DNA from: Cyanobacterium sp. HL-69
GTDB taxonomy: Bacteria; Cyanobacteriota; Cyanobacteriia; Cyanobacteriales; Cyanobacteriaceae
Direction of reading: 5' to 3'
Assembly (NCBI GenBank): GCA_002813895.1
Contig: CP024912.1
Span: 806,001 to 870,000, forward strand
DNA length: 64,000 bases
The notes under the pieces are model-generated. The model worked only from the letters and a program-made list of their open reading frames with translations, searched no databases and was not told where the DNA came from. The position numbers and the translations under genes were made by a program. Below are positions 2 through 51,806 of the stretch, piece by piece (positions within the stretch are counted from its first letter, which is position 1; each line of letters begins with the position of its first letter).

Positions 2-3000
2 GTTAGTCAGTATCGTTTAGAAAACAATTATCAACAATTAACGGAAAATTTTACTCATAATCTGCAGATTAATAATTATATTAATTTGGTTAGAAATACG
101 GCTTATGGTTTAGGTTTAATTTCTGAAAATAGTTATAGACGATCGCATTTAATTGACTATAATAAATTTAGGGAATTGTTTGTTGGTGATTGGGATTTAC
201 CAGAAATTGAAATCCTTTATTTGTGGGAAGAAATTCAGTATATTATCAAGGGAAGTTATAGTTATTCTTATAAGGAAAAAGGAATCATCTGCCTCCATGA
301 TTATGACCAAGAAAATGAGAAGAAAGATAAAATAGTATCGAACCTAGAAGCAGATAACATCTATCGTATTGCAGAAAAATATCAAGACTGGTTAGAAGAA
401 AATCAATACTGGGATATAGGGGATTTAACCCAAATAGTATTAAATAAATTACCTTCTTATTTTAGAGGGGAATATGACACCATTTTTGTGGATGATATTA
501 ATAATTTAAGCGACTTATCTTTACAACTACTTTTGCGATTGGTAAAAATAAATCCAGGGCAAAAAAAACCTAGGGTGGTATTTACCTATGATGAAGCCCT
601 ATTACATCAAAACGAAGGCGCTGTTAACGAAAAACTAGAGCAAATTTTTGCAACTATTTTAAGAGACTTAAATTTAGATGGGGAAACACCTTATTTTCAA
701 CCAGCCTTAAATCTAAAGGTTGCCCAAACCGATAACCATGAATTAATCGAATTAGAAAAAATTGTTGTTAATTTAGCTCAGAAGATAGAATATCAACCTA
801 ATATTAACCATGTTATTAACACCATTGAAAATTGCCATTGGTTAGTATCATCCCATGATAATATCATTTCTGCCCTAGAGGAATTACAACCAGATACCGT
901 CATCATTGTACCTAGTTTAGAAGAAAAACAAACCCTTTTAAAAGACGTAGCAACCTTAGAGAAAAAAACAGCCCAAATCTTAACAATTCACCAAATAAAT
1001 AACTATGAATTTAGCCAAGTTATAATTTGGAATTTCTTTAGTTATTTTAATCAAGTTAATCCTCATTCTCTTAGTCAACTCATTCAACGATACCTATACC
1101 CTTGTCTTAACGCTGTTAAAGATAAAGTCTTTTTCTATGAAAGCAACTATGATATTTTTGAACATTATCCCATTCTAAATAATTATATTCATAAATCAGG
1201 GCTAAAGGCGATCGCCCCTATACTCAATCAAAAAAATAGAGAAGAAATCGAAAAATTAGCCCATAGCTATAGTCAACAAGGTGCATGGAAGATAGCCCAA
1301 CAATGTTATACAACCCTAGGTAATCATCAACAAATCAAATATCTTGATACCCCCATCGCCCAACTAGAGGGAAACTGGGATGTAGCAGGGGAATTATGGA
1401 ATCAATGGGAAGAATGGGATAAAGCCATATTAGCTTGGCAAGAAATACATCCCCATCTATGGCTAGAAAAATGGGCAGAATTAACCCCCAACCAATGGCA
1501 AGAAAAAGCCAACTACCTTGCCCAAAAACATCAATATACCCTAGCAGGAATCTGCTACCAAAAATGTCAAGACATAGAAGGATATATCCGTTGTCTCCAA
1601 GAAAATAGACAATGGGAAACCATCGCCGACATTTATAAAGAAAAAAACCTTTTAGAAAAAGCCCAACAAAACTATCTCCTCGCCGAAAAACACTACCTGC
1701 AACAAAAAAACCTTGCCCCCGCAGGAAGAATGTGGGAAAAACTGGGTATGTGGAAAAAAGCAGCCCTCATCTGGGAAAAACTAGGCGCATGGGAAACCGC
1801 CGCCGAAAATTGGCTAAAAGAAAACAACCCAGAAAAAACAGCCCAATGTTATGAAAAAAGTAACCATTGGGATAAAGCAGAAATCCATTGGCGAGAATTA
1901 AACAACCAAAGCGCCATCGCTATTGCCTGTGAGAAACAAGAAAAATGGGCAACCGCTGCCCAAATTTGGAAAGAATTACAAGAATGGCAAAAAGCCGCCC
2001 ACTGTTTTACCCAAGCCCAAGAAATAGAATCCGCTGCCCATTGTTATCAAAACGCCATGGAGTGGGCAAAAGCAGAAATCTGTTGGTGCCAACTAAACCA
2101 ACTTCCCCAAATCGCCATCGCCTGTGAATGTCAAAACAAATGGCAAAACGCCGCCAAAATTTGGGAAGAATTAGGAGAATGGTTAAGGGCTGGATTTGCT
2201 TGGGAAATGGAAACAGAAACTTACAAAGCTGCCCTTGCTTATGAAAAGTGTCAACAGTGGCAAAAAGCCGAAGTTTGTTGGCGACAATTAAACCAAGGGG
2301 AAAAAGTTGCCCTTGCCTGTGAAAATCAAGATAAGTGGTTAGAAGCAGGAAAAATTTGGGCAAAAGTGGGAGAAAAAGAAAAAGCCGCCCTTGCCTATGA
2401 AAAAATAGAAGCATGGCAACAAGCCTTGGAATTGTGGCAACAACTTCACAATCCCCAAAAAGTAGCTTTCACCTGTTATCAATTAGGAAAATATGAAACA
2501 GCCGCTCAAATTTGGCAAACCCTAGGGCAATGGCAACTAGCAGGGGAAGCATGGGAAAAATTAAAGGAGATAGATAAAGCTATTTTTGCCTATGAAAAAG
2601 GAAATTACTGGCAGGAAATTGAAAGAATTTATCGTCATCTACAAAAATGGGCAAAAGTAGCCGTCGCCTGTGAAAAACAAGGAAAATGGCTAGATGCAGG
2701 AGATATTTGGCAAAAATTAGCACAAATTCCCAATGCTTCCCGTTGTTATGAGTTAGCTAGAGATTGGGCAAAAGCTGAAAAAGGATGGCGACAATTAAAA
2801 CAATGGGCTTGTGTAGCAGTGTGTTGTGAAAGACAGAGTAAATGGTTGGAAGCTGCCAAGGCGTGGGAGGAGGTAAATCCTTTCATAAAATCTGCCCTTT
2901 GTTATGAGAAGGTGGAAGATTGGGAAAAAGCAGAAGCCCTTTGGAGAAAGGAATCTAATTGGGTTAAGGTTGCTAAGGCTTGTGAAGCCCAAGAAAAATG

Positions 3001-4657
3001 GGCAGAAGCTGCTCAAATTTGGCAAGATTTGGAAGTATGGGAAAGATCTGCAAAAGTTTGGGCTAAAATTAATCAGCTAGAATTGGCTGCCCCCTGTTAT
3101 GAAAAAGCGCAGTTGTGGCAGGAGGCAGAATATTGTTGGCAAGAGGTGGGCAATATCGAAAACCTAGCCCGTATGGCAGAGTCTCAGCAAGATTGGCAAA
3201 AAGCGGCCGAAATTTGGCAACAGGAAAATAGTTGGTTTAATGCGGGAGTGGCTTGGGAAAAAGCTGGGGAAATAAAAAAAGCGGCTTTTTGTTATCAGGA
3301 GGATAGTAGTTGGCAAGAGGCGAGGAATTGTTGGCAAACATTAAAGGATTTTCGTCAGGTAGCAATTTGTTGTGAAAAACAAAAGGCTTGGCAAAATGCT
3401 GGGGAGGCTTGGTTAAAAGTGGGGGAAGTAGAAAAAGCGGCTTTATGTTTTCAGCAGGGGGAATTTTGGCAGGATGCCCAAGGTTGTTGGTTAAGGTTAC
3501 AAAGTTATAATAATGTGGCAATTTGTTGTGAAAAACAAAAGGCTTGGCAAAATGCTGGGGAGGCTTGGTTAAAAGCTGAGGAAATAGAAAAGGCTGCTTT
3601 ATGTTTTCAACGGGGAAACCATTGGCAAGATGCCCAAGATTGTTGGTTAAGGTTACAAAGTTATCGTAATGTGGCAATTTGTTGTGAGAAGCAAAAGGCT
3701 TGGCAAAATGCCGGGGAGGCTTGGTTAAAAGCTGAGGAAATAGAAAAGGCTGCTTTATGTTTTCAGCAAGGAAGAAGTTGGCAAGATGCCCAAGATTGTT
3801 GGCAAAAGTTGGGTAATTATCATAAGGTAGCTATCTGTCTACAAAAGTTGGATATGTGGGTGCAAGGGGCGCAAACTTGGGAGTCTTTGCAAAATTGGCA
3901 AAATGCGGCTAAGGCTTGGTTACAGGCAGGGGAGATGGAAAAGGCGGCTATTTGTTACGAAAATGGCGGTTTTTGGGAAAGGGCGGAAAGTCTCTGGGAA
4001 AAGTTGGAAAAATGGGACAAATTAGCATACACCTGTGAAAAGCAGCAAAAATGGCAAAAAGTAGGGTTTGCTTATCAACAAACCCAAGAATGGATGAAAG
4101 CAGGGCAAATCTATGAACAAATTTCAGCTTATGCAGAGGCCGAAAAATGCTGGCGGGAGTTGAAGGATTGGCAACGGGTTGCTTATACTTGTGAGCAACA
4201 GTCGCAATGGATAAGGGCTGGAGAGGCTTGGAGTCTGGCTAAAAATTGGCAGTCTTCTGCTCAGGCTTATGAGAGGGGAAGCCATTGGCTAAAGGCTTTT
4301 GAGGCTTGGAAAAATGCGGGAAATTGGGTAAAAGGTGCGATCGCCCTTGAACAAGGTCAAATGTACTATGAGGCTGCGGAAATATGGTTAAAAACTGACA
4401 TCAAAGAAAAAGAGGAAAAAGCAGGGCTTAATTATGAGTTAGCCCAAAAATGGGAGTTGGCAGAAGAATGTTGGCGGAGAATACCCCGTTGGGATAAAAT
4501 CGCTCTTTGTTGTGAAAAACAGGGTGATCAAAAAGTAGATTTAGCCATTGAGGCATGGTTGAATGCGGGGAATAAACTCAAGGCGGCTAATTTACTACGT
4601 CGCACTGGTAGATGGAAACAAGCCGCAGGAGTCTTGACAGGAATTAAAGATAAATAG
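2..4657 (+). CDS. Giant UvrD/TRANK1-like protein with Trp-rich TPR-like repeats (5' end outside window)
   Basis: The frame is open from base 2 with no stop, so the real start lies upstream; a TTG at 86 is only an internal candidate. About the first 400 visible residues resemble the later part of a superfamily I helicase of the UvrD/TRANK1 kind: YDTIFVDDINNLS (about 160-172) sits where motif II (DEaQd) is expected, and TIHQINNYEFSQVIIWNFF (about 327-345) where the TIHxxKGLEF motif belongs. Both are degenerate, so helicase activity is doubtful; the Walker A part is not in the window. From about residue 415 to the end runs a long array of short helical units with W..A...W and YE/CE..W..A patterns; Trp is about one residue in twelve in the stretch I counted. 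This is probably a large alpha-solenoid scaffold. No function is known to me; family assignment is by motif only. Confidence 0.75.
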   Translation, partial: VSQYRLENNYQQLTENFTHNLQINNYINLVRNTAYGLGLISENSYRRSHLIDYNKFRELFVGDWDLPEIEILYLWEEIQYIIKGSYSYSYKEKGIICLHDYDQENEKKDKIVSNLEADNIYRIAEKYQDWLEENQYWDIGDLTQIVLNKLPSYFRGEYDTIFVDDINNLSDLSLQLLLRLVKINPGQKKPRVVFTYDEALLHQNEGAVNEKLEQIFATILRDLNLDGETPYFQPALNLKVAQTDNHELIELEKIVVNLAQKIEYQPNINHVINTIENCHWLVSSHDNIISALEELQPDTVIIVPSLEEKQTLLKDVATLEKKTAQILTIHQINNYEFSQVIIWNFFSYFNQVNPHSLSQLIQRYLYPCLNAVKDKVFFYESNYDIFEHYPILNNYIHKSGLKAIAPILNQKNREEIEKLAHSYSQQGAWKIAQQCYTTLGNHQQIKYLDTPIAQLEGNWDVAGELWNQWEEWDKAILAWQEIHPHLWLEKWAELTPNQWQEKANYLAQKHQYTLAGICYQKCQDIEGYIRCLQENRQWETIADIYKEKNLLEKAQQNYLLAEKHYLQQKNLAPAGRMWEKLGMWKKAALIWEKLGAWETAAENWLKENNPEKTAQCYEKSNHWDKAEIHWRELNNQSAIAIACEKQEKWATAAQIWKELQEWQKAAHCFTQAQEIESAAHCYQNAMEWAKAEICWCQLNQLPQIAIACECQNKWQNAAKIWEELGEWLRAGFAWEMETETYKAALAYEKCQQWQKAEVCWRQLNQGEKVALACENQDKWLEAGKIWAKVGEKEKAALAYEKIEAWQQALELWQQLHNPQKVAFTCYQLGKYETAAQIWQTLGQWQLAGEAWEKLKEIDKAIFAYEKGNYWQEIERIYRHLQKWAKVAVACEKQGKWLDAGDIWQKLAQIPNASRCYELARDWAKAEKGWRQLKQWACVAVCCERQSKWLEAAKAWEEVNPFIKSALCYEKVEDWEKAEALWRKESNWVKVAKACEAQEKWAEAAQIWQDLEVWERSAKVWAKINQLELAAPCYEKAQLWQEAEYCWQEVGNIENLARMAESQQDWQKAAEIWQQENSWFNAGVAWEKAGEIKKAAFCYQEDSSWQEARNCWQTLKDFRQVAICCEKQKAWQNAGEAWLKVGEVEKAALCFQQGEFWQDAQGCWLRLQSYNNVAICCEKQKAWQNAGEAWLKAEEIEKAALCFQRGNHWQDAQDCWLRLQSYRNVAICCEKQKAWQNAGEAWLKAEEIEKAALCFQQGRSWQDAQDCWQKLGNYHKVAICLQKLDMWVQGAQTWESLQNWQNAAKAWLQAGEMEKAAICYENGGFWERAESLWEKLEKWDKLAYTCEKQQKWQKVGFAYQQTQEWMKAGQIYEQISAYAEAEKCWRELKDWQRVAYTCEQQSQWIRAGEAWSLAKNWQSSAQAYERGSHWLKAFEAWKNAGNWVKGAIALEQGQMYYEAAEIWLKTDIKEKEEKAGLNYELAQKWELAEECWRRIPRWDKIALCCEKQGDQKVDLAIEAWLNAGNKLKAANLLRRTGRWKQAAGVLTGIKDK
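3362..3829 (+). repeat. Three tandem 156-bp units inside the Trp-repeat gene
   Basis: Units begin at 3362, 3518 and 3674, each opening with GCAATTTGTTGTGA and continuing through AAGGCTTGGCAAAATGC. The period is exactly 156 bp (52 codons), so the frame is kept. The DNA is nearly identical over the first half of each unit, whereas other protein repeats in this gene are diverged, pointing to recent in-frame expansion by recombination or slippage. Confidence 0.93.
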
Positions 4658-21193: not shown

Positions 21194-24100
21194 ATGGGAT
21201 ACGTTAGATACTCTAGTTTCGTCAGTCTTCTTCAAGAGCGTGCAGTCTTGCACCCAAATCAAGTTATCTTCACCTTCTTAGGGGATGGTGAGAACGAGTC
21301 TGATTATCTAACCTATCATCAATTAGATCAACAAGCAAGGGCGATCGCCCATAAACTCCAAAGCAGAAAAGCAAAAGGAGAAAGAGCATTATTACTATAT
21401 CAACCGGGGCTAGAATTCGTCACCGCCTTCCTCGGTTGTCTCTATGCAGGAGTCATCGCTACCCCCGCCTATCCTCCCCGTGCCAATCGTTCCTATACCC
21501 GCTTATCCGCTATTATCAAAGATGCTGGCGCATTATTTGCCCTGACAACTCAAGCACTCAAAGAAAAAATTGAGCAAAAATTAACCAAAAACGATGATAT
21601 AACTTGTATTACCACCGATGACATCCCCCTAAGTGTAGCCCAAAACTGGCAACCACACCCCATCAAACCAGAAGAAACCGCTTTTTTGCAATATACCAGC
21701 GGCTCTACAGGCACACCCAAAGGAGTTATCGTAAGTCATGGTAACCTAGTCCACAACTCTCAGCTAATCAAAGATTATTTTCATAACGACGAACATTGTG
21801 TAGGCTCATTTTGGCTTCCCCCTTACCACGATATGGGCTTAATTGGAGGTATTTTACAACCAATTTACTCTCGTTTTCACTCCATCATGTTGCCCCCCGT
21901 TACCTTCCTACAGCGCCCCATTCGCTGGTTACGGGCTATTAGTAAGTATAAAGCAACCACCGCAGGAGGCCCAAATTTTGCTTATGAAATGTGTGTCAAC
22001 TCCGTCACACCACAGCAGAAACAGGATTTAGATTTGAGCCATTGGAAACTGGCGTTTAGTGGTGCTGAGCCTGTGAGGGCAGAAACTATTGCCAAATTTA
22101 GCCAATATTTCGGTGATTGTGGCTTTCAAAAAGAAAGTTTCTACCCCTGTTATGGTATGGCAGAAACCACTCTCATTGTGTCGGGGGCAAATCCCTATGA
22201 GTCTCCCACTGTCAAAAATATCTCTGCTACTAAACTACAAGAAAATCAAATTGTTTTTAATCCTGAAGATGAAGGCGATATACAAAAAGTTGTCAGCAGT
22301 GGCACCATATCTCCCCAATTAGAGGTAAATATTGTCAATCCTGATACCCTCGTACAATGCCCTGATAATAACGTAGGGGAAATATGGGTAAAAGGGGAAA
22401 GTGTAACTCAGGGTTATTGGTTGAAAGAAGAATTAACCGAGAAAACCTTTAATGGCACTACTAAAAACGGAAAAAAAAAGGGTTTTCTACGCACTGGGGA
22501 TTTAGGTTTTCTCAGTGATGGAGAGTTATTTGTTACAGGAAGATTAAAGGATTTAATTATTATTAGGGGTAGAAATCATTACCCCCAAGATATAGAAGAA
22601 AGTGTGGGGAATATTCACGAGGCAATTAACTCTGAAAGTGGTGCTGCTTTTGCCATTGAGAAGGATAATGATGAGCAACTGATCATAGTTTTTGAACTGA
22701 AAAGAACTTTTTTACAGAAGGTAAGGCAAAGTGAGAATTTAAAGCAAGAAATATTTGATGCAATTCGTAAAGTAGTTGCTGAAAATCACGAATTACAAGC
22801 TCATTCTATAGTTTTAATTCGCACCGGTAGTATTCCTAAAACCTCTAGTGGTAAGATTGCTCGTTATGCCTCTCGGAAAGAATTTTTAGAGGGAAATTTA
22901 CCTATAGTCGCCCAGTGGGATTTACACTCTACTACATCTTTGAAAAGTAATGATATAACAACTATAAATAGATTAAAAAACAATAATATTTTTGATAATA
23001 AAAATATTAATAAAAAAAATTTAAAGATACGACAATGGCTAGCAAATAACGTTGCTAATCGCTTACAAGTAAATCCTAATTCCATCGATATAGAACAACC
23101 TTTTATCAATTATGGACTAGATTCCGTCCAAGCTGTGCAACTCACCGCCGATCTTGAAGATTATTTAGGTTGTAAATTGTCTCCCACTTTGGCTTATGAT
23201 TATCCTAATATAAGAAGTTTATCTTTTTATTTGTCTGAATTAAAAAATGATAATATTCTAGGCTTAGAAGTTGAAGAAAAAAACGAGCAAAAAGTAGAAC
23301 AAATTGCCATTGTCGCCATGGCTTGTCGTTTTCCAGAGGCGGATAGCCCTAAGCATTATTGGGAATTGTTATCGAATAACAAGAATAGCATTAGCAAAAC
23401 TTATCTGCGGCCGAACATCGATAGTTTTGGGGGTTATATAAAAGATTATGACCAATTTGACCCACAATTTTTTGGAATTTCCACCCGTGAGGCGATAAAT
23501 ATTGACCCACAACAGCGTATTTTATTAGAGGTAACCTATGAAGCGCTGGAAAATGCCCATTTGACGACAGAAAAAATTTCGGGTAGTGCCACGGGAGTGT
23601 TTATGGGTATTAGTAGCCAAGATTATGCCCAGTTACAGATGAAACATGGGTGGGATGTTAATGTTTATTCTGGTACGGGAAATTCCAGTGCGATCGCCTC
23701 TAACCGTATATCCTATAATTTTAATTTAACTGGCCCTTCCTTGAGTGTGGATACCGCCTGTTCATCTTCTTTGGTTGCGGTACACTTAGCAGTAAATAGC
23801 CTTAAAAATGGTGAGTGTGACTGTGCCATTGTAGGGGGAGTAAACTTGATTCTTGCCCCCGAATTGACAGAAACTTTCCAAAAAGCAGGGATGATGGCAG
23901 AGGATGGCAAGTGTAAAACTTTCTCTGAAGATGCCGATGGTTATGGGCGCGGGGAAGGTTGCGGGGTAATTATCCTCAAACCTTTAACTAAAGCCTTAGC
24001 TGATCGTGACAAGGTGTTGGCGGTAATTCATGGTAGCGCCATTAATCAGGATGGGCGTAGTAACGGGTTAACGGCGCCTTCAGGTAAAGCGCAACAGAGG

Positions 24101-27100
24101 GTAATTCAATCGGCGTGGAAAAATGCGTCTATTACTCCTGATAAAATTAATTATATCGAAGCTCATGGAACTGGAACACCTTTAGGAGATCCTATCGAGG
24201 TTAATTCGTTGGCTGGTTTATTACCTTTGGTGGATGGGCAACGGACTGTTAATTCTTCTTCTGTTATGGATGACAATGAGGGAAAGACTTCCTTTGACAG
24301 TGTAGTTAATAGCAAAGAGGAAAAGACTTCCCCTCAGAGTGTAGCTAATGGAAAAGGAAAAGAGTCTTCTGTTACTGTCGATGATTCCTCTGCACAGAAG
24401 ATAAAAGAAACAAGAGAAAAAGACTACCCTATTTGTTGGTTAGGTAGTGCGAAAACAAACATCGGGCATTTAGAAGCTGCCGCAGGTATTGCAGGGTTAA
24501 TAAAAACTGTGTTGATGTTAAATCATGAAGAGATACCCTCCATCGTTAACTTTACAAAATTAAATCCCTATATCAATTTAGAAAAAAGTCGCTTACAAAT
24601 TGCCACTAAATCAGTGGAGTGGAAAAAATCTAATCAACCTCGTTTTGCCGGGGTAAGTTCCTTTGGTTTTGGAGGAACAAATGCCCATGTTATAGTGGGA
24701 GATATGATTGATTCTCCTGTAACTATAGAAGAAAAAGAAGTTAAGACAGAAAAAGTCAAACGTCCTTATCATCTTTTAACCCTTAGTGCGACAACAGAAA
24801 AAGCCCTTCAAGAGTTAGTTAATCGTTATCAAGGTTATCTTACCAAGACACAGGGAGATGATATTAGTCATATTTGTTATAGCACAAACCAAGGGCGATC
24901 GCACTTTAACCATCGTTTAGCCATTAGTGCAAAAAACAAGACAGAATTAACAGAAAAACTGTCTTCGGTGACAATTTTCCCAGAAAACCAGATTAACAAT
25001 AATCAAATAGCCTTCTTATTTACAGGGCAAGGCTCACAGTATAATAATATGGGCAAAGAGTTATATCAAACTGCCCCCCTTTTCAAAGACACCATTGATT
25101 ACTGTGGTGAGATTCTTCGTCAATATTTAGAGAAACCCCTTACCGAGATAATCTTTAACCCCGAAGAAAAAGAAACCCTTAACCAAACCATCTATACCCA
25201 ACCCGCCATCTTCGTAGTAGAATATGCCCTTGCGCAACTGTGGCTATCATGGGGAGTAAAACCATCTATGATGATGGGGCATAGTGTGGGCGAATACGTT
25301 GCCGCTACCCTTGCAGGAGTTTTTAGTTTAGAAGATGCCCTCAAATTAGTCGCCCACCGTGGTAAACTCATGCAACAACTTCCCCTCGATGGGGGCATGG
25401 TGTGTCTATTTACCAACCTTGACACCGTCAAAAAGTTAATTACAAAAACAGGATTACCCCTCGACATTGCCGCCATCAACGGTAATAGTAATATTGTTGT
25501 CTCAGGGAAAAAAGAAGACTTACTGCAATTACAAACTACCGCCAAAGAAAGTAAAGTAAAATGTCGTCCACTAAGAGTTTCCCACGGCTTTCATTCCCGA
25601 TTGATGCAACCTATCTTAGTAGATTTTGAAAAAATTGCCCAAGAAATTACCTATAATTCACCTCAAGGGGAAATAGTCTCTAATCTCACAGGAAAAACCA
25701 TCGGCGAAGAAATTGCCTCCCCAGACTATTGGGTAAAACATATTATCAATCCCGTTAACTTTGCCCAAAGTGTGGAGTATTTACAACAACAAAACTATCA
25801 AATTTTTTTGGAAATTGGCAGTAAACCAACCCTCCTTGGCATGGCAAGGATGATAGTAGAAAACAAAACTAATCCCGATGATTGTCTTTGGTTGCCTAGT
25901 TTACGCAAAGAAGAATCCGACTGGCAAAATTTACTTTCTAGTCTAGGTATTCTTTACCAGCAAGGATTAAAAATTGACTGGTATGGTTTTAATCAAGATT
26001 ATCCCTATTTAGAAAGGGTTTCTTTACCTAACTATCCTTGGCAACATCAAAGATACTGGCATGGAGATAGTGTAAGTAATAGCGTTGATGATAGTCAACA
26101 GTGGTTATATGAAGTGGTATGGGAAAAAGACTCTTCTATTTCTGTGGTAAATCTTGCCTCTAATGTTATGGAGGAAAAAACTACGACAGTTATTACCTCC
26201 AATGAGTTAGTTATTGAAGGGGTATCGGTAAAAAATCATCCCTTAACTAAGGTATCTACAGAAAATAATCCCCATGGTATCTCTATCCATATCGAGAGTG
26301 AGGAAGACTCTTTTCCTACAAATCTCCCTAGTAGTTATTTAATCTTTGTGGATGATGAAAAATTAGGGGAGACATGGGCAGAGGAATTAACCTCCCAAGG
26401 TAGTCGAGTTTATTTAGTCTATCAAGGAGAAAGTTATCGTCAGGAAGAAAACACCTATTATATTAATCCTCAACAGAAAAAAGACTACCAATTATTGTTA
26501 GATAGTCTTGGTGATAAGGTAGAAAAAATTATCTATGGTTGGGCAATCACTCAAGATGATGATTTAGAGAATATTAATCAATTGACTGCTAATAATTATT
26601 TAGACTGTTTACCCGTTATCTATCTAATTCAAAATTTAGTTAACAGTAAGCATCAAGTAAAAATATGGTTAATTAGCCAAAACAGTCAATCTATTACCCA
26701 ACAAGAAAAAATTAATCCCTACGGTGGCAGTATCTGGGGATTAGGAAAAGTGATTGCCCTCGAACATAGTGAATACTGGGGGGGTATGATTGATATAGAT
26801 AATAGTAACCTTGCCCTTCCTCTTCTTGGTTACCTCGTTAACCATAAGCCAGAAGAAACTATGACGGCAATCAGGGATAATGCTGTTTTCTATTGTCGTT
26901 TACAAAATAAAACTCTTGATACCCCCAAGGAAGCCAAAAAAGTTAGTGTCAAATCCTCTGGTAGTTATCTCATTACAGGGGGATTAGGGGCATTAGGTTT
27001 AGAAACTGCTAATTATTTAATTAGTCAGGGGGCAAAAAATCTTATTCTTGTTTCCCGTAGTCAACCTTCTTCTTCGGCTTCTCAAAAAATTAGTCAATGG

Positions 27101-29824
27101 CAAGAAGAGGGTATTAATGTAGTTGTCAAACAAGGGGATGTAACTAAAAAAGAATCCTTGAGAAAAATTATTGATGATATTAATAAGTCTTTTCCTCCCC
27201 TCAAAGGGATTATTCATACCGCAGGGGTATTGGATGATGCTATCTTGGCAACTCTTTCCCCTGAAAAATTGGCTAAGGTAATGGAAGCTAAGGTGGTGGG
27301 AGTAAATAATTTACATCTACTCACCCTCGATAACAGTCTTGACTTTTTTATCTTGTATTCTTCTGTGGCTTCTATGTTAGGCTCTATAGGACAGGGTAAT
27401 TATGCCATGGCGAATAGTTACCTCGATACTTTTGCGGCTTATCGTCAATCCCTTAGTTTACCCTGTTTGAGTATTAACTGGGGTGCTTTTTCTGTGGGTA
27501 TGGCGAAGGCAACCCAAGAGGGTTTAAAGGCGGTGGGTATTGAAACCATCTCTCCTGATAAGGGTATCTCCATGGTAGGGGATTTGATGAATTATCCTAA
27601 CTCTGGGCTAGGGGTAATCAAGTTTAACTGGGATAATGTTGCCCGTAAGTTTCCTCAATTGTCTCAATCTCCTTATCTACAAAATATAATTTCTTCTTCT
27701 GACAAGGAAGAGAATAAAAAAGATGATAGTCAAACTCAATTATTTAACCAATTACTAAAAGCCGATGATACTGCCAGAATAAAGCTATTAATAGATTATC
27801 TCATAAGTGCGATCGCCCTTATCCTTCATATAGACAAGGAAAAAATTACCCCCGAAGATAGCCTCATAGATTTAGGTATGGATTCATTAATGGTGATGGA
27901 AGCCATTAATCACCTGAAAAACGACCTACAATTAATGTTATACCCTAGGGAAATTTATGAGCGCCCCCAAATTTCCACCCTAGCGCAGTATTTAGCCCAA
28001 GAATTTACCACCAGCCATGATAGTAATAGTAGTAAAATCACCTCCTCCAGCCAAAAAGGGATGATAGTTTCTCCATCCCCCGAAGAAGAGGAAGAAAAGC
28101 CCACCTTTAATCCCACCAATCACCAACCTATTGCCTTTATCTTATCAAGTCCGCGCTCAGGTTCAACCCTCCTGCGGGTAATGTTGGCTGGGCATCCCGC
28201 CTTGGTTTCTCCCCCCGAATTGCACCTATTACCCTTTGCCACCATGGAGGAAAGACAACGGGAATTGGAATCTTCTCACCTTGGGGAAGGGTTGATTCGC
28301 ACCGTCATGGATTTAAAACAAATTAGTGCCGAAGAAAGTGAAGCATTAATTAATCAATGGGTTGAGGAAAACTTAACCATCGCCCAAGTGTATGAAATCT
28401 TGCAGTCTTTCGGCAAAAATCGTCTTTTAATCGACAAATCGCCCACTTATGCAAGTAGTAAACAAACTCTCTATAATGCAGAAAATATCTTTTCTCAAGC
28501 AAAATATATTCATTTAGTTCGTCACCCTTATTCTGTCATAGAATCATTTGCACGGATGAGAATGGATAAATTATTAGATATAAAAGAGGCAAACCCTTAT
28601 GAAATTGGGGAAAACATCTGGTATCAAAGTAATCAAAATGTTATTAATTTTAGTAAGCAAATAGATAGTAATAAAATTTTAACTATTTATTATGAAAATT
28701 TAGTGACATCTCCACAAAAAGAGATGGAAAAAATAAGTAATTTTCTAGGAATTGAGTTTAGTAAATCTCTACTAAATCCCTATGAAGGGGAAAGAATGAC
28801 CGCAGGGTTATATAAACAATCCATGTCCGTAGGAGATCCAAATTTTAATAGTCGTAAAAAAATCGATCCAAATTTAGCAAATCACTGGAAAAAAGTTCAA
28901 TTACCAATACTATTAAACCCTATCACTAGACAATTATCTGAAACATTTAACTATGAATTACCCCATGAATCAAACACCGTAGAAACCAAAGAAAAATATC
29001 TTGATATTAGAGGTTTAAATATATGTGTTTCTACTTGGGGAGATGAAAACAATCCTCCTCTATTTATTGTCCATGGAATATTAGATCAAGGTTTTGCCTG
29101 GGAAAAAGTAGCTCAAAACTTAGTTCAAAAAGGATACTATGTGATTGCCCCTGATATGAGAGGACATGGTAAATCTGACCATAACAGCCTAGGGTGTGCT
29201 TATAATTTACTTGATTTTGTAGCAGATTTAGACTGTTTAATTGATGAGTTAAATAATGGGCAAACAATCACTTTAGTTGGTCATTCTTTTGGCTCTATGA
29301 TTACAGGAATATATGCTGGTATGCGTCCTGAAAAAGTAGAAAAATTATATTTGATTGAACCTATTTTACCAGCAGAAAATAAAGGTAATAAGAATGTAGA
29401 AAATATTAGTAGTCAATTGAATAACCTGCTGAATGTGCCTCCTCTCCCTGTATTTGATACGGTGGAAATAGTTGCCCAACGACTACAAAAAACAGCCCCT
29501 CAATTAGAGGATGGCTTTGCCCTCACACTTGCTAAAAGGATGACAAAACCTGTAGAAGGTGGGGTAACTTTCACTTATTCTCCTTTATTAGCCACTAGGA
29601 TTGGGGTAGGTTTTAACAGTATTCCCCGTAATCAATACCTAAAGCTATTATCTGGCATTGAAGCGTCCATTACTCTAGTATATGGTGATAATAGTTCTTT
29701 TAATCGTCCTCAAGATTTGGAGGCACAAAAAACAGCCATGGCAAATACTCGAATTTTTACCATGGTTGGGGGGCATAATTTACACTTAGAAAACCCTTTG
29801 AGTTTAGCTGATGTTATTATTTAG
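21194..29824 (+). CDS. ols: Type I PKS olefin synthase (medium/long-chain 1-alkene synthase)
   Basis: A 2876-aa megasynthase that loads a fatty acid, extends it by one malonyl unit, reduces the keto group, sulfates the hydroxyl and decarboxylates to a terminal alkene. Domain order: FAAL (about 1-590, YTSGSTGTPKGV), ACP1 (Ser644), KS (Cys856, His991, His1092), AT (GHSVGE, Ser1364), KR (about 1930-2130), ACP2 (Ser2231), PAPS-dependent sulfotransferase (SSPRSGSTLLR, about 2318-2328), thioesterase (Ser2698, Glu2722, His2861). Ser-to-Glu spacing of 24 matches the CurM/Ols decarboxylating TE. The order is that of Ols in Synechococcus PCC 7002, whose protein I recall as roughly 150 aa shorter. The KS carries an unusual insertion of about 60 residues (about 1014-1076). 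All catalytic residues are present, so the enzyme should work. Confidence 0.97.
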   Translation: MGYVRYSSFVSLLQERAVLHPNQVIFTFLGDGENESDYLTYHQLDQQARAIAHKLQSRKAKGERALLLYQPGLEFVTAFLGCLYAGVIATPAYPPRANRSYTRLSAIIKDAGALFALTTQALKEKIEQKLTKNDDITCITTDDIPLSVAQNWQPHPIKPEETAFLQYTSGSTGTPKGVIVSHGNLVHNSQLIKDYFHNDEHCVGSFWLPPYHDMGLIGGILQPIYSRFHSIMLPPVTFLQRPIRWLRAISKYKATTAGGPNFAYEMCVNSVTPQQKQDLDLSHWKLAFSGAEPVRAETIAKFSQYFGDCGFQKESFYPCYGMAETTLIVSGANPYESPTVKNISATKLQENQIVFNPEDEGDIQKVVSSGTISPQLEVNIVNPDTLVQCPDNNVGEIWVKGESVTQGYWLKEELTEKTFNGTTKNGKKKGFLRTGDLGFLSDGELFVTGRLKDLIIIRGRNHYPQDIEESVGNIHEAINSESGAAFAIEKDNDEQLIIVFELKRTFLQKVRQSENLKQEIFDAIRKVVAENHELQAHSIVLIRTGSIPKTSSGKIARYASRKEFLEGNLPIVAQWDLHSTTSLKSNDITTINRLKNNNIFDNKNINKKNLKIRQWLANNVANRLQVNPNSIDIEQPFINYGLDSVQAVQLTADLEDYLGCKLSPTLAYDYPNIRSLSFYLSELKNDNILGLEVEEKNEQKVEQIAIVAMACRFPEADSPKHYWELLSNNKNSISKTYLRPNIDSFGGYIKDYDQFDPQFFGISTREAINIDPQQRILLEVTYEALENAHLTTEKISGSATGVFMGISSQDYAQLQMKHGWDVNVYSGTGNSSAIASNRISYNFNLTGPSLSVDTACSSSLVAVHLAVNSLKNGECDCAIVGGVNLILAPELTETFQKAGMMAEDGKCKTFSEDADGYGRGEGCGVIILKPLTKALADRDKVLAVIHGSAINQDGRSNGLTAPSGKAQQRVIQSAWKNASITPDKINYIEAHGTGTPLGDPIEVNSLAGLLPLVDGQRTVNSSSVMDDNEGKTSFDSVVNSKEEKTSPQSVANGKGKESSVTVDDSSAQKIKETREKDYPICWLGSAKTNIGHLEAAAGIAGLIKTVLMLNHEEIPSIVNFTKLNPYINLEKSRLQIATKSVEWKKSNQPRFAGVSSFGFGGTNAHVIVGDMIDSPVTIEEKEVKTEKVKRPYHLLTLSATTEKALQELVNRYQGYLTKTQGDDISHICYSTNQGRSHFNHRLAISAKNKTELTEKLSSVTIFPENQINNNQIAFLFTGQGSQYNNMGKELYQTAPLFKDTIDYCGEILRQYLEKPLTEIIFNPEEKETLNQTIYTQPAIFVVEYALAQLWLSWGVKPSMMMGHSVGEYVAATLAGVFSLEDALKLVAHRGKLMQQLPLDGGMVCLFTNLDTVKKLITKTGLPLDIAAINGNSNIVVSGKKEDLLQLQTTAKESKVKCRPLRVSHGFHSRLMQPILVDFEKIAQEITYNSPQGEIVSNLTGKTIGEEIASPDYWVKHIINPVNFAQSVEYLQQQNYQIFLEIGSKPTLLGMARMIVENKTNPDDCLWLPSLRKEESDWQNLLSSLGILYQQGLKIDWYGFNQDYPYLERVSLPNYPWQHQRYWHGDSVSNSVDDSQQWLYEVVWEKDSSISVVNLASNVMEEKTTTVITSNELVIEGVSVKNHPLTKVSTENNPHGISIHIESEEDSFPTNLPSSYLIFVDDEKLGETWAEELTSQGSRVYLVYQGESYRQEENTYYINPQQKKDYQLLLDSLGDKVEKIIYGWAITQDDDLENINQLTANNYLDCLPVIYLIQNLVNSKHQVKIWLISQNSQSITQQEKINPYGGSIWGLGKVIALEHSEYWGGMIDIDNSNLALPLLGYLVNHKPEETMTAIRDNAVFYCRLQNKTLDTPKEAKKVSVKSSGSYLITGGLGALGLETANYLISQGAKNLILVSRSQPSSSASQKISQWQEEGINVVVKQGDVTKKESLRKIIDDINKSFPPLKGIIHTAGVLDDAILATLSPEKLAKVMEAKVVGVNNLHLLTLDNSLDFFILYSSVASMLGSIGQGNYAMANSYLDTFAAYRQSLSLPCLSINWGAFSVGMAKATQEGLKAVGIETISPDKGISMVGDLMNYPNSGLGVIKFNWDNVARKFPQLSQSPYLQNIISSSDKEENKKDDSQTQLFNQLLKADDTARIKLLIDYLISAIALILHIDKEKITPEDSLIDLGMDSLMVMEAINHLKNDLQLMLYPREIYERPQISTLAQYLAQEFTTSHDSNSSKITSSSQKGMIVSPSPEEEEEKPTFNPTNHQPIAFILSSPRSGSTLLRVMLAGHPALVSPPELHLLPFATMEERQRELESSHLGEGLIRTVMDLKQISAEESEALINQWVEENLTIAQVYEILQSFGKNRLLIDKSPTYASSKQTLYNAENIFSQAKYIHLVRHPYSVIESFARMRMDKLLDIKEANPYEIGENIWYQSNQNVINFSKQIDSNKILTIYYENLVTSPQKEMEKISNFLGIEFSKSLLNPYEGERMTAGLYKQSMSVGDPNFNSRKKIDPNLANHWKKVQLPILLNPITRQLSETFNYELPHESNTVETKEKYLDIRGLNICVSTWGDENNPPLFIVHGILDQGFAWEKVAQNLVQKGYYVIAPDMRGHGKSDHNSLGCAYNLLDFVADLDCLIDELNNGQTITLVGHSFGSMITGIYAGMRPEKVEKLYLIEPILPAENKGNKNVENISSQLNNLLNVPPLPVFDTVEIVAQRLQKTAPQLEDGFALTLAKRMTKPVEGGVTFTYSPLLATRIGVGFNSIPRNQYLKLLSGIEASITLVYGDNSSFNRPQDLEAQKTAMANTRIFTMVGGHNLHLENPLSLADVII
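24281..24358 (+). repeat. Imperfect 39-bp tandem duplication in the KS insertion of ols
   Basis: Two 39-bp units (24281-24319 and 24320-24358), about three quarters identical, both containing AAAGACTTCC or a close variant and AGTGTAG(T/C)TAATG/A. They encode GKTSFDSVVNSKE and EKTSPQSVANGKG. In-frame period of 13 codons. Confidence 0.8.
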
Positions 29825-48617: not shown

Positions 48618-49316
48618 TTATCTAACGGCTTCTAACAGACGAGAATAATAAAAACTGGTGCTAGTCATTTCTTGGCGTTTGATGTTAAAACCATTATCAT
48701 TAAGAATTTTAATAATATCTTCCTCTTTATGTTGATAAGCCCTAGTGGTTTTACTTGGCCCCGGAAAAAACTCACCAATTTTCTTTAAAATAGTTAAAAA
48801 GGGAGTTTTGGGTGCAAAACTTAAAATCAATCGAGACTTTGCCAAGGAAGCAAGATGGCTAATCATTGCGGCGGCATCTTCGGTGGGATAGTGAATAAGT
48901 ACATCTAAACAAATAACGGTGTCATACTCTCCCCGAATAGACTCTAAGTCTTGCACCGCTAACCTAACGTTACGGGGATTTGTCATTACCTGTTTAATTT
49001 TTTCGGCGGCTTCTCCTACCATTTTGGCAGATATATCACTGGCGAAAACCGTTGCCTCATCTTGGGCGAGGGGAATGGTTAAACTACCAACTCCACAACC
49101 TGCATCGCAGATAGATAGTTGGGAAAGATTACCGTCATCTTGTAACCACTTTACTACTTTATCGATGGTTTGTTGATGTCCTTGCCTAATATCTAGCTGT
49201 ACTTTGTTTACTGTACCATTGCCATAAATATTACGCCAACGTTCAAACCCTGTGGCATTAAAATATTCTTTGACGACTTTTTTATCATCAACTTTGTTTT
49301 TTAGTGTAGTTGTCAT
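48618..49316 (-). CDS. chlM: Magnesium protoporphyrin IX O-methyltransferase
   Basis: SAM-dependent methylation of Mg-protoporphyrin IX in chlorophyll synthesis; cytoplasmic/membrane-associated. KEYFNATGFERWRNIYG at the N-terminus is specific to ChlM/BchM. Motif I ICDAGCGVGSLTIPLA, motif II-like VQDLESIRGEYDTVICLDVLIHYP and the end KRQEMTSTSFYYSRLLEAVR complete the family. 232 aa, normal length. Confidence 0.96.
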   Translation of the reverse strand: MTTTLKNKVDDKKVVKEYFNATGFERWRNIYGNGTVNKVQLDIRQGHQQTIDKVVKWLQDDGNLSQLSICDAGCGVGSLTIPLAQDEATVFASDISAKMVGEAAEKIKQVMTNPRNVRLAVQDLESIRGEYDTVICLDVLIHYPTEDAAAMISHLASLAKSRLILSFAPKTPFLTILKKIGEFFPGPSKTTRAYQHKEEDIIKILNDNGFNIKRQEMTSTSFYYSRLLEAVR

Positions 49317-49381: not shown

Positions 49382-51472
49382 TTACCAGAATTTCTCTGGG
49401 ATTGTCACGGGTTGTGATACTTCTATTATTTCAGTATATTCAAACTGGTTATCACTTTTTTTGACGAGGGGATATTGCTTTCCATACAAAGTGATATAGT
49501 CTTCTTGACAGTCTTGTTTTGGTGAGCGATAAACTAAGACATATTGACGATGAATATAGTTATCCATTTCTTTTTCTACTTCCATCCTCCATTGGGTTTT
49601 GGTAACTAACACTACCAGTTGATTAGCTAATTGAGGAATGGCTTTGGCTACTTGGGTGCGGTAAATTTCGTCGAGACTGCCGAAGGGGGAATCCATGATG
49701 ATGGGGAATTGATGGGCGGAGGGTTTGACAATACTATCTTCTGTTGACCATTGTTTTACCATGTCGATGATAGCACCGATAAAGGAAAGGCTAAGAATTT
49801 GATTTTCTCCTGTGGAGGCGGCAACGTCGAGGGGGATTCCAGAGGTGTTTTCAATGAGGTTTAATTCATAGTTTTCGTTGAGTTGTGGTTGATAGGGGGT
49901 GAAGGAAATTGTGCTAAATATTTCTTGTAGTCTTTTTTCGAGGGCGAGACGAAATTGGTTTTCTAGTCTTATTTTTACTTCTTGGAGACATTTTATTGAT
50001 TCTTCGGTGGCGTTTATTCTTTTTTGGGTTAGTTGATATTTTTCGGCTTTTATTTCTTGTTTTTTGATGGTTTTTTCAAGGGTTTTTATATTTTCAGTAA
50101 TGGTTTCTATTTGTAGGTTTGTTTCTCCTTGATTGAGGGTTAATTTGCGGATATGTTGTTCAATATTATCTAATTCTTTTTGAGCAGATTGAATATTTTT
50201 GTCGGGATATACTCTAAGTTGATCATTTATTTTATCGATTTCATTTTCTATTTGGCTTAGTTTTTCTCGATATTCACCAATTTGGTATTGATATTGGTCA
50301 ATTTCTTGATATATATTTTCAGGATAGGATTCAATAGTTTTTACTTGCACATCCAAACGTATAGCTTCTTCTTCCATTTTGGCAACCCCTGCTTTATTCA
50401 TCCACTGTTTTACTTCTTCGTAGGGTTGATTTCCTTCTCTTAATTCTGTACCACAAATACAGCGATTTTGTTCTAGTAAATGGTTAACAAATTCTTTTTT
50501 TATACCGCTGGGAAGTTGTCCTTTTTCTCTCAGTTTATCTACTATAATATGGAACTGGGCGATCGCCCCTACAAGATAAATTAAATAACCTTGACGGGAG
50601 ACTATTTGCTTAATTTTTTGACGATGATTACCTAATTGAATCCGATAATGTTTAGCATCTTGTAATAACTTATTTCGTAAAGTTTCTAAATTTTTAACTC
50701 CACTCATTTCTAATAGTTGACTGGAAATGTTTTGTTTATCTTCTGCCAATTTATGTAACCGAGAAATAATTAATTTGTTTTGCTCTTCTTTCTCTTCTTT
50801 TTCTTGCTCTAAATCTCTTTTTTGTCTAATAGTTTGTTTAACCTCTATATCGCCTAATACTGACAACTCATCTTGTAACGTTTTTTTAGCATTTTTTAGA
50901 TGAATTACAGCTCTTTCAATAAATTTCACTCCTATTAACTCTTTAGTATCTTCCGCTATTTTTTTCCTTTCTCCAGAACGAAAAATCTGCTCAATTTGTT
51001 CTCCATCAAAAAAGAAGTATTGGTGTAAACTACTAGGTAAAATTCTCTCAATAATGTCCTCTGGTTTTTCATGGGGATATTTGGTAGTGCCATCATCGGC
51101 CGTCACCATCATAGTTAAAGTAGATTGACTATTTTCTAGTTTATTCTGAGCATTTCGACTGACAAAAAACCTTCTTTTTACCTGATAACGAAAGTAATTA
51201 TGATCAAATACTACCATTACTGAACATTCAATATTTACCCCTATTTCAGCTTCATTAATCGCCTTTTTATTGATTAACAAATGGGGAGACGAAAAAGCAG
51301 GAGTAAACTTTTCATACAATACCCAAGTAAAAGCATTTAATAAAGTAGTTTTTCCCGCACCATTATTACCATGAATAATAGTAGTGTGTTTTTCCCCTCC
51401 ACTAAAAGAAATAACAGGAGTCTCCCCATAAAACTGCCTAAAATTATTAGCTTGTAAAGAGATTAGTTTCAT
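49382..51472 (-). CDS. SMC/Rad50/DndD-like ATPase
   Basis: 696 aa. Walker A GNNGAGKTT at 35-43, following LQANNFRQFYG..ISF as in DndD/Rad50. Two coiled-coil arms (about 190-290 and 370-510) flank a short hinge with Cys338-Ile-Cys340 (RCICGTEL), not the CxxC of Rad50. The C-terminal half has a signature-like ASTGENQILSLSF and Walker B FPIIMDSPFGSLDE, then QLVVLVTKTQW. Closest in style to DndD, the ATPase of DNA phosphorothioation, and to ATPases in several anti-phage systems, but no dndBCE or restriction genes are beside it. The ATG overlaps the stop of the 59-aa ORF (ATGA), so the two are coupled. Role unknown; DNA-end or structure sensing is an inference. Confidence 0.87.
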   Translation of the reverse strand: MKLISLQANNFRQFYGETPVISFSGGEKHTTIIHGNNGAGKTTLLNAFTWVLYEKFTPAFSSPHLLINKKAINEAEIGVNIECSVMVVFDHNYFRYQVKRRFFVSRNAQNKLENSQSTLTMMVTADDGTTKYPHEKPEDIIERILPSSLHQYFFFDGEQIEQIFRSGERKKIAEDTKELIGVKFIERAVIHLKNAKKTLQDELSVLGDIEVKQTIRQKRDLEQEKEEKEEQNKLIISRLHKLAEDKQNISSQLLEMSGVKNLETLRNKLLQDAKHYRIQLGNHRQKIKQIVSRQGYLIYLVGAIAQFHIIVDKLREKGQLPSGIKKEFVNHLLEQNRCICGTELREGNQPYEEVKQWMNKAGVAKMEEEAIRLDVQVKTIESYPENIYQEIDQYQYQIGEYREKLSQIENEIDKINDQLRVYPDKNIQSAQKELDNIEQHIRKLTLNQGETNLQIETITENIKTLEKTIKKQEIKAEKYQLTQKRINATEESIKCLQEVKIRLENQFRLALEKRLQEIFSTISFTPYQPQLNENYELNLIENTSGIPLDVAASTGENQILSLSFIGAIIDMVKQWSTEDSIVKPSAHQFPIIMDSPFGSLDEIYRTQVAKAIPQLANQLVVLVTKTQWRMEVEKEMDNYIHRQYVLVYRSPKQDCQEDYITLYGKQYPLVKKSDNQFEYTEIIEVSQPVTIPEKFW

Positions 51473-51648
51473 TGAATATTTTGTTTAATTATTTTTAAGA
51501 CATCATCATTAATATGACGAAGGTTATTATTGTATAGTCGTTCTTTTTCTAATGTTAAAACCTGTTCAATAATGCTTTTAACTTCTGGTTTTACATTTTG
51601 AATTGGTTCATTGATTTCATCTAAGTTGATAAGGCTAGTATTGACCAT
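51469..51648 (-). CDS. 59-aa protein coupled to the SMC/DndD-like ATPase
   Basis: Reads MVNTSLINLDEINEPIQNVK.., then two helix-rich stretches with Lys/Glu/Ile/Leu (SIIEQVLTLEKERLYN, DDVLKIIKQNIQ). The TGA stop shares the ATGA with the ATPase start, so it is translated first and probably sets its dose. I do not recognise a family. The length, charge pattern and position are like small accessory subunits of SMC-type defence ATPases. Preceding DNA is A/T-rich, consistent with a promoter near 51660-51720. Confidence 0.75.
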   Translation of the reverse strand: MVNTSLINLDEINEPIQNVKPEVKSIIEQVLTLEKERLYNNNLRHINDDVLKIIKQNIQ

Positions 51649-51806
51649 CTTATTAGGTTTATAATACTTTTTTTTACATTATATAGCAGTCTTAAATAGT
51701 TGATAAAAAAGTTTTTGCTTAACTAATAATAGTTAGTTTCTTGATGATTCGTTAGAATAATACAGATTTTTTATCTTTCGATGTCCGCTAAACTTTAGTA
51801 ATTTTT

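What the first reader, a model, noticed from the sequence alone, without database searches (positions are those of the whole stretch)
49382..51648. Two-gene module: SMC/DndD-like ATPase coupled to a 59-aa protein
The short ORF (51469-51648) ends in ATGA, which is also the start of the ATPase. The ATPase has Walker A GNNGAGKTT, two coiled-coil arms with a CxC hinge and a DndD-style Walker B (DSPFGSLDE), yet no dnd, restriction or nuclease gene is adjacent. Small-subunit plus SMC-ATPase pairs occur in anti-phage systems such as Lamassu; here no effector is seen. This could be a minimal or undescribed genome-surveillance system.
Basis: partly seen in the sequence, partly recalled or inferred. Interest (0 to 1): 0.6.

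Follow-up and report, generated by a model that had tools for sequence, protein, structure and literature searches.

The report
Scattered sulfur-DNA defence genes, PbeB–PbeC
The two genes are not a new mini-system: they are the PbeB and PbeC parts of a DNA-sulfur (phosphorothioate) marking and phage-exclusion system whose other genes all still exist in this cyanobacterium but lie at five other places on its chromosome, a scattered layout that gene-cluster searches would miss.

Summary
In detail: a 59-aa ORF overlaps by ATGA a 696-aa ATPase with Walker A, CxC hook and DndD-style Walker B. The ATPase is PbeC, the CxC-clade ABC ATPase of phosphorothioate (PT) systems (PADLOC 866 bits); it is neither DndD nor Lamassu. 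The 59-aa protein is PbeB: it occupies the PbeB slot from archaea to bacteria, a profile of it finds haloarchaeal PbeB-position proteins, and it is under purifying selection. 'No dnd gene adjacent' is true only locally. The same chromosome carries DndC, DndD, DndE, PbeA and PbeD at five further, unlinked places, each intact. In relatives the same genes form one 14-kb cluster, with every intermediate arrangement. Over 293 genomes of the order, five genes scored separately are all present in 214 and all absent in 36; DndD and PbeB follow where tested. So a scattered gene set is kept or lost as a unit. The order's PbeA lacks the PLD/HKD nuclease domain. Likely function, inferred: DndCDE marks DNA with sulfur; PbeABCD scans for unmarked DNA and blocks it without cutting. 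New variant of a known kind; it questions the published view that cyanobacteria have no PT restriction arm.

The parts
51469..51648 (-). pbeB: 59-aa small protein, predicted three helices (9-17, 21-40, 47-57)
49382..51472 (-). pbeC: 696-aa CxC-clade ABC ATPase
   Evidence: PADLOC PbeC PDLC02753 866 bits, E 2.9e-261
51469..51472 (-). ATGA stop/start overlap (translational coupling)
   Evidence: 70 of 82 loci
51344..51370 (-). Walker A GNNGAGKTT (residues 35-43)
50453..50461 (-). CxC hook, C338-I-C340, at the apex between the two coiled-coil arms
49781..49816 (-). ABC signature-like STGENQILSLSF (residues 553-564)
49667..49708 (-). Walker B / D-loop FPIIMDSPFGSLDE (residues 589-602)
51678..51706 (-). 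promoter-like site (TTATCA-17-TATAAT), 30 nt upstream of pbeB; consensus match only

Best explanation
The pair is PbeB + PbeC of a phosphorothioate (PT) DNA-marking and exclusion system whose genes have been scattered in this genome. Shown: (1) identity of the pair; (2) presence on the same 3.16-Mb chromosome of DndC (288,988), DndE (559,169), PbeBC (855,385), DndD (1,688,699), PbeD (1,892,162) and PbeA (3,022,033), six separate loci, start positions on contig C1; (3) the same genes clustered in relatives; (4) joint retention and joint loss across the order. Inferred: DndC, DndD and DndE, with a housekeeping cysteine desulfurase, put sulfur into the chromosome at specific sites. PbeC dimers, held at the CxC (probably zinc) hook and assembled with co-translated PbeB, work with the DNA-binding protein PbeD and the PbeA translocase to scan DNA. 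On DNA without the sulfur marks the complex stays engaged and blocks replication. No cutting is expected from PbeA here, because it lacks the PLD/HKD nuclease domain.
For: PbeC model 866 bits; DndD equivalog only 124 bits against a cut-off of 246. Partners in the same genome exceed curated cut-offs: DndC TIGR03183 700, DndD TIGR03185 601, DndE TIGR03184 122, PbeD TIGR04062 147, PbeA TIGR04095 626 bits. Clusters in relatives: PbeA-PbeB-PbeC-...-PbeD-HNH-DndB-DndC-DndD-DndE. Across complete genomes the set occupies 1 to 6 loci. Phyletic matrix of 293 genomes: all five scored genes in 214, none in 36, pairwise phi 0.68-0.85. DndD in 0 of 36 'none' and all 24 'all' genomes tested. PbeB in all PbeC-bearing genomes tested and in no 'none' genome apart from one marginal hit. 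Negative control: TIGR04096, another dnd-associated family, is found in many 'none' genomes. PbeB homology to archaeal PbeB-position proteins. Block without cleavage: PbeABCD in haloarchaea (PMC6459918).
Against: No PT measurement, expression or phage data for this organism. The characterised archaeal PbeA has a PLD domain and this one does not, so the exclusion activity may differ. Near-universal vertical presence and scattering are unusual for a defence system and would suit a housekeeping role. Genomes are phylogenetically related, so the association p-values are inflated. The PbeB profile hits haloarchaeal PbeB-position proteins but not the alphaproteobacterial ones.
Confidence: 0.8

Rival explanations
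1. Domesticated chromosome or epigenetic/antioxidant system: the scattered, nuclease-less Dnd-Pbe set is a vertically inherited house system in which PbeBC-D acts like a PT-guided SMC (positioning, repair or replication control) and no longer excludes foreign DNA.
For: Present in about 84% of 293 genomes of the order, single copy in nearly all; PbeC identity falls with taxonomic distance (81-84% and 62% in genus, 48-55% in order); pieces sit among housekeeping genes (chlM, glmS, rpsI/truA, mobA, acsF by inspection), partly conserved in a sister species; PbeA lacks the PLD domain; HNH and DndB absent in this genome.
Against: Complete loss of the whole set in many genomes that are otherwise complete; archaeal PbeABCD blocks virus replication without visible cleavage (PMC6459918), so a missing nuclease domain does not exclude defence.
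Confidence: 0.3
2. A stand-alone two-gene surveillance module, independent of Dnd.
For: The pair alone is conserved as a translationally coupled unit even where all other partners have moved away.
Against: PbeC is almost never found without PbeA and PbeD in near-complete genomes. Two near-complete genomes, G096 and G175, keep PbeA, PbeB, PbeC and PbeD without DndC, DndD or DndE, so even then it is more than two genes.
Confidence: 0.04
3. Decaying fragments of a once clustered island, no longer working together, as suggested for separated dnd genes in Microcoleus (PMC8546630).
For: Scattering; single genomes with damaged members, such as split PbeC in G064.
Against: All six pieces are intact in this genome; dN/dS of PbeB and PbeC well below 1; joint retention over 200 species with all-or-none distribution.
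Confidence: 0.05

Closest known systems
Dnd-PbeABCD system of haloarchaea (Xiong et al. 2019, PMC6459918)
   Same: PbeB-PbeC gene order, PbeA helicase, PbeD (152 aa there, 151 aa here) and the PT writers DndC, DndD, DndE.
   Different: There one gene cluster and PbeA with a PLD domain; here six unlinked loci and PbeA without PLD.
CxC-clade ABC-ATPase/DndE systems (PMC10853773)
   Same: CxC hook, DndD sister clade, small protein (SP = PbeB), cognate DndE-like protein (PbeD).
   Different: Described as universally gene-linked to DndE and with a rapidly evolving, mostly disordered SP. Here PbeC is not linked to PbeD/DndE, and the SP is conserved and predicted helical.
Cyanobacterial dnd genes (Jian et al. 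2021, PMC8569181; Microcoleus PMC8546630; Microcystis PMC2442094)
   Same: Varied and broken-up dnd gene order in cyanobacteria was noted.
   Different: Jian et al. state that PT restriction is absent in Cyanobacteria (only DndFGH considered; 'Pbe' does not occur in the text). Here Pbe genes accompany Dnd through most of the order.
Lamassu (LmuB) / Rad50 / SbcC
   Same: SMC-like coiled-coil ATPase.
   Different: The 25 best PADLOC matches are all PbeC or DndD; Rad50 and SbcC score 46 and 40 bits.

Membership tests
PbeABCD / CxC-clade system | PbeC ATPase of the CxC clade (CxC hook, best score to PbeC not DndD) | tested here: met
PbeABCD / CxC-clade system | PbeB small protein directly upstream of PbeC, homologous to PbeB elsewhere | tested here: met
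   profile hits to haloarchaea 34.5 and 24.6 bits, above 12,000 shuffled decoys (best 16.8); alphaproteobacterial ones not detected
PbeABCD / CxC-clade system | PbeD / DndE-clade-2 protein gene-linked to PbeC | tested here: not met
   PbeD present in the genome (TIGR04062, 147 bits) but about 1 Mb away
PbeABCD / CxC-clade system | PbeA helicase in the genome | tested here: met
   TIGR04095, 626 bits against cut-off 600; PADLOC PbeA 530 bits
PbeABCD / CxC-clade system | PLD/HKD nuclease domain in PbeA | tested here: not met
   PF13091 found in PbeA of G399 (above cut-off) and G416 (below cut-off) but not in this genome or G169; listed hits of the order are mostly frames of about 460-550 aa against 714-733 aa in G399 and G416
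Dnd PT modification | DndC, DndD and DndE in the genome | tested here: met
Dnd PT modification | PT linkages in the DNA | not testable with these tools
   needs mass spectrometry or iodine cleavage
Dnd PT modification | window ATPase is DndD itself | tested here: not met
   124 bits against cut-off 246; true DndD is at C1:1,688,699
Lamassu | LmuB-type ATPase with adjacent LmuA effector | tested here: not met
   no Lamassu model among the 25 best of 74 PADLOC matches; no effector gene adjacent

The most novel reading that the evidence does not exclude
A PT-guided, nuclease-less SMC-like machine that has become part of the core genome of one cyanobacterial order and serves chromosome maintenance or epigenetic control, its genes having left the operon and settled among housekeeping genes.
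Probability: 0.3. Interest if true: 0.78.

Novelty: new variant of a known kind. Interest (0 to 1): 0.6.

Why it matters
Defence and modification systems are found by looking for neighbouring genes. Here a seven-gene system survives intact with its parts at six places, so cluster-based surveys miss it or call it incomplete. Published reasoning that cyanobacterial PT began as an antioxidant because the phylum has no restriction arm counted only DndFGH. Pbe genes accompany Dnd in most genomes of the order examined, which reopens that question and makes it testable in culturable cyanobacteria. The graded series from one cluster to six loci is also a natural experiment in how an operon dissolves while its product stays needed.

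Tried and rejected
Lamassu, Rad50 and SbcC membership. DndD membership. PDB sequence search gave only a weak coiled-coil match to AriA, E 0.02. The AF2 model of PbeC was too poor for a fold search, so none was run. TIGR04096 methyltransferase as a further partner: not co-distributed. Phage carriage: only two weakly similar phage records. A first script that ignored strand failed to find PbeB at some loci; the corrected one is.

Full report
What is in the window. On the - strand, 51648-51469 encodes a 59-aa protein and 51472-49382 a 696-aa ATPase; the two overlap by ATGA. The ATPase has Walker A, an ABC signature-like STGENQILSL, Walker B MDSPFGSLDE, and a C338-x-C340 motif between two predicted coiled-coil arms. 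A promoter-like site lies 30 nt before the small gene (consensus match only). Downstream is chlM-like 48618-49316 and divergently upstream an O-antigen-ligase-like gene (names by inspection; no Dnd gene is next to the pair).

Identity of the ATPase. PADLOC gives PbeC at 866 bits over the full model, while the NCBIfam DndD equivalog reaches 124 bits, below its cut-off of 246. PbeC is the CxC-clade ABC ATPase, the sister of DndD (PMC10853773). In 61 distinct homologues the CxC cysteines and nucleotide-binding motifs are invariant.

Identity of the small protein. It was found next to PbeC in 78 of 82 loci, 70 with the exact 4-nt overlap. dN/dS is 0.00-0.33 for it and 0.04-0.15 for PbeC in the pairs measured. 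In plasmids of Pseudanabaena, Halorhabdus, Natrinema, Ruegeria, Pontibrevibacter and Rhizobium a 48-63-aa gene touches or overlaps the start of PbeC; a PbeA-like helicase lies upstream in all but Rhizobium, where a helicase follows PbeD, and a PbeD-like gene (annotated, or a 150-160-aa hypothetical in the haloarchaea) lies downstream, directly so in all but Pseudanabaena. A profile of the cyanobacterial proteins hits the haloarchaeal ones at 34.5 and 24.6 bits, above all 12,000 shuffled decoys (best 16.8), but not the proteobacterial ones. It is therefore PbeB. AF2 on two sequences gives three helices at mean pLDDT 78, which does not fit the 'mostly disordered' description (PMC10853773) for this branch.

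The partners are elsewhere. Searching the window's own genome found DndE (PF08870, 146 bits) at C1:559,169, a second DndD-like ATPase at 1,688,699, which is true DndD at 601 bits, DndC at 288,988, PbeD at 1,892,162 and PbeA at 3,022,033. All exceed curated cut-offs and are open frames. DndB and the HNH protein of clustered relatives were not found in this genome. Nothing dnd-like was recognised next to any of the scattered genes. The local surroundings of the DndC, DndE, PbeD and PbeBC pieces are at least partly the same in the sister genome G185, so the scattering is older than that split.

Clustered relatives. In G169 the order is PbeA, PbeB, PbeC, two other genes, PbeD, HNH, DndB, DndC, one gene, DndD, DndE, all within about 14 kb. 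Similar clusters exist in G014, G058, G033, G241, G266 and G113, and outside the order in G416 and partly G399. Because clusters occur in several families and outside the order, clustering is the likelier ancestral state (inference). Complete genomes show 1, 2, 3, 4, 5 and 6 loci (coordinates typed from search outputs). PbeB stays with PbeC through nearly all of this. The exceptions seen are genus g14, where in G009 PbeB lies beside PbeA, and single disrupted genomes such as G064.

Joint retention and loss. Five genes were searched separately in the same 293 genomes: PbeC 245, PbeA 246, PbeD 238, DndC 230, DndE 240. All five are present in 214 and none in 36. Many of the mixed patterns are in genomes under 90% complete. 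DndD is absent from all 36 'none' genomes and present in all 24 'all' genomes tested. PbeB is present in every PbeC-bearing genome tested and absent from 'none' and dnd-only genomes, apart from one marginal partial hit at E 9e-4. Whole-set absence occurs within genera that otherwise carry the set: G120 in g23, G068 in g53, and G183, G193, G230 and G253 in g90 beside G170. With genes at several loci, one deletion cannot explain this. The genomes are related, so Fisher p-values (down to 1e-40) overstate the strength. TIGR04096, a dnd-associated methyltransferase, is found in many 'none' genomes and serves as a negative control.

Nuclease. PbeA in G399 and G416 carries a PLD-like domain (PF13091; above cut-off in G399 only), as does the archaeal PbeA that was tested (PMC6459918); PbeA here and in G169 is helicase only, and the order's listed PbeA frames are mostly about 460-550 aa against 714-733 aa in G399 and G416.

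Mechanism. Established for haloarchaea: DndCDEA marks DNA and PbeABCD stops virus DNA replication without visible cleavage, all four pbe genes being needed for full protection (PMC6459918). By homology the most likely action here is the same, with PbeBC-PbeD as the scanning complex and PbeA as translocase. The division of labour, the role of PbeB as structural partner of PbeC, and action without cleavage are inferred. A domesticated housekeeping role is the main rival.

Relation to the literature. Jian et al. (PMC8569181) noted disorder of dnd operons in cyanobacteria, stated that PT restriction is absent there, and argued for an antioxidant origin; Pbe is not mentioned in their text. The Microcoleus study (PMC8546630) saw dndBC and dndDE apart and treated the dnd cluster as incomplete, though it also noted a PT-system restriction enzyme nearby. 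I found no paper in the held library describing the scattered Pbe set; most subscription papers are not covered.

Noticed in passing
L107:16405-19045 (genome G012): pbeA is split at about codon 379 by a 2.6-kb insert encoding a 609-aa protein that looks like a group II intron reverse transcriptase (by inspection); the flanking pbeA parts meet without loss of residues near the conserved helicase motif LDEGVDIPA.
   Followed up: partly
L064:7152-13414 (own genome, C1:559-565 kb): dndE lies 0.7 kb from glmS, and TnsA/TnsB-like genes lie directly on the other side of glmS, a Tn7-type attachment context (by inspection).
   Followed up: no
G064:C1:2624747-2626561 and 2671931-2672095: PbeC lacks its first 43 residues and PbeB is about 46 kb away: a rearrangement seems to have cut the pair in this genome.
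   Followed up: partly
L074 (G399): Clustered Pbe-Dnd locus outside the order with PLD-bearing PbeA, but DndC is seen only as weak or partial matches.
   Followed up: no
window 21194-29824: 2876-aa multidomain synthase whose apparent order (acyl ligase, ketosynthase, acyltransferase, ketoreductase, sulfotransferase, hydrolase) recalls cyanobacterial olefin synthases; recalled, not tested.
   Followed up: no
window 86-4657: 1523-aa protein made largely of short tryptophan- and alanine-rich repeats.
   Followed up: no
genomes G096, G175: Near-complete genomes that keep PbeA, PbeB, PbeC and PbeD but have no DndC, DndD or DndE: natural cases of Pbe without the PT writer.
   Followed up: partly
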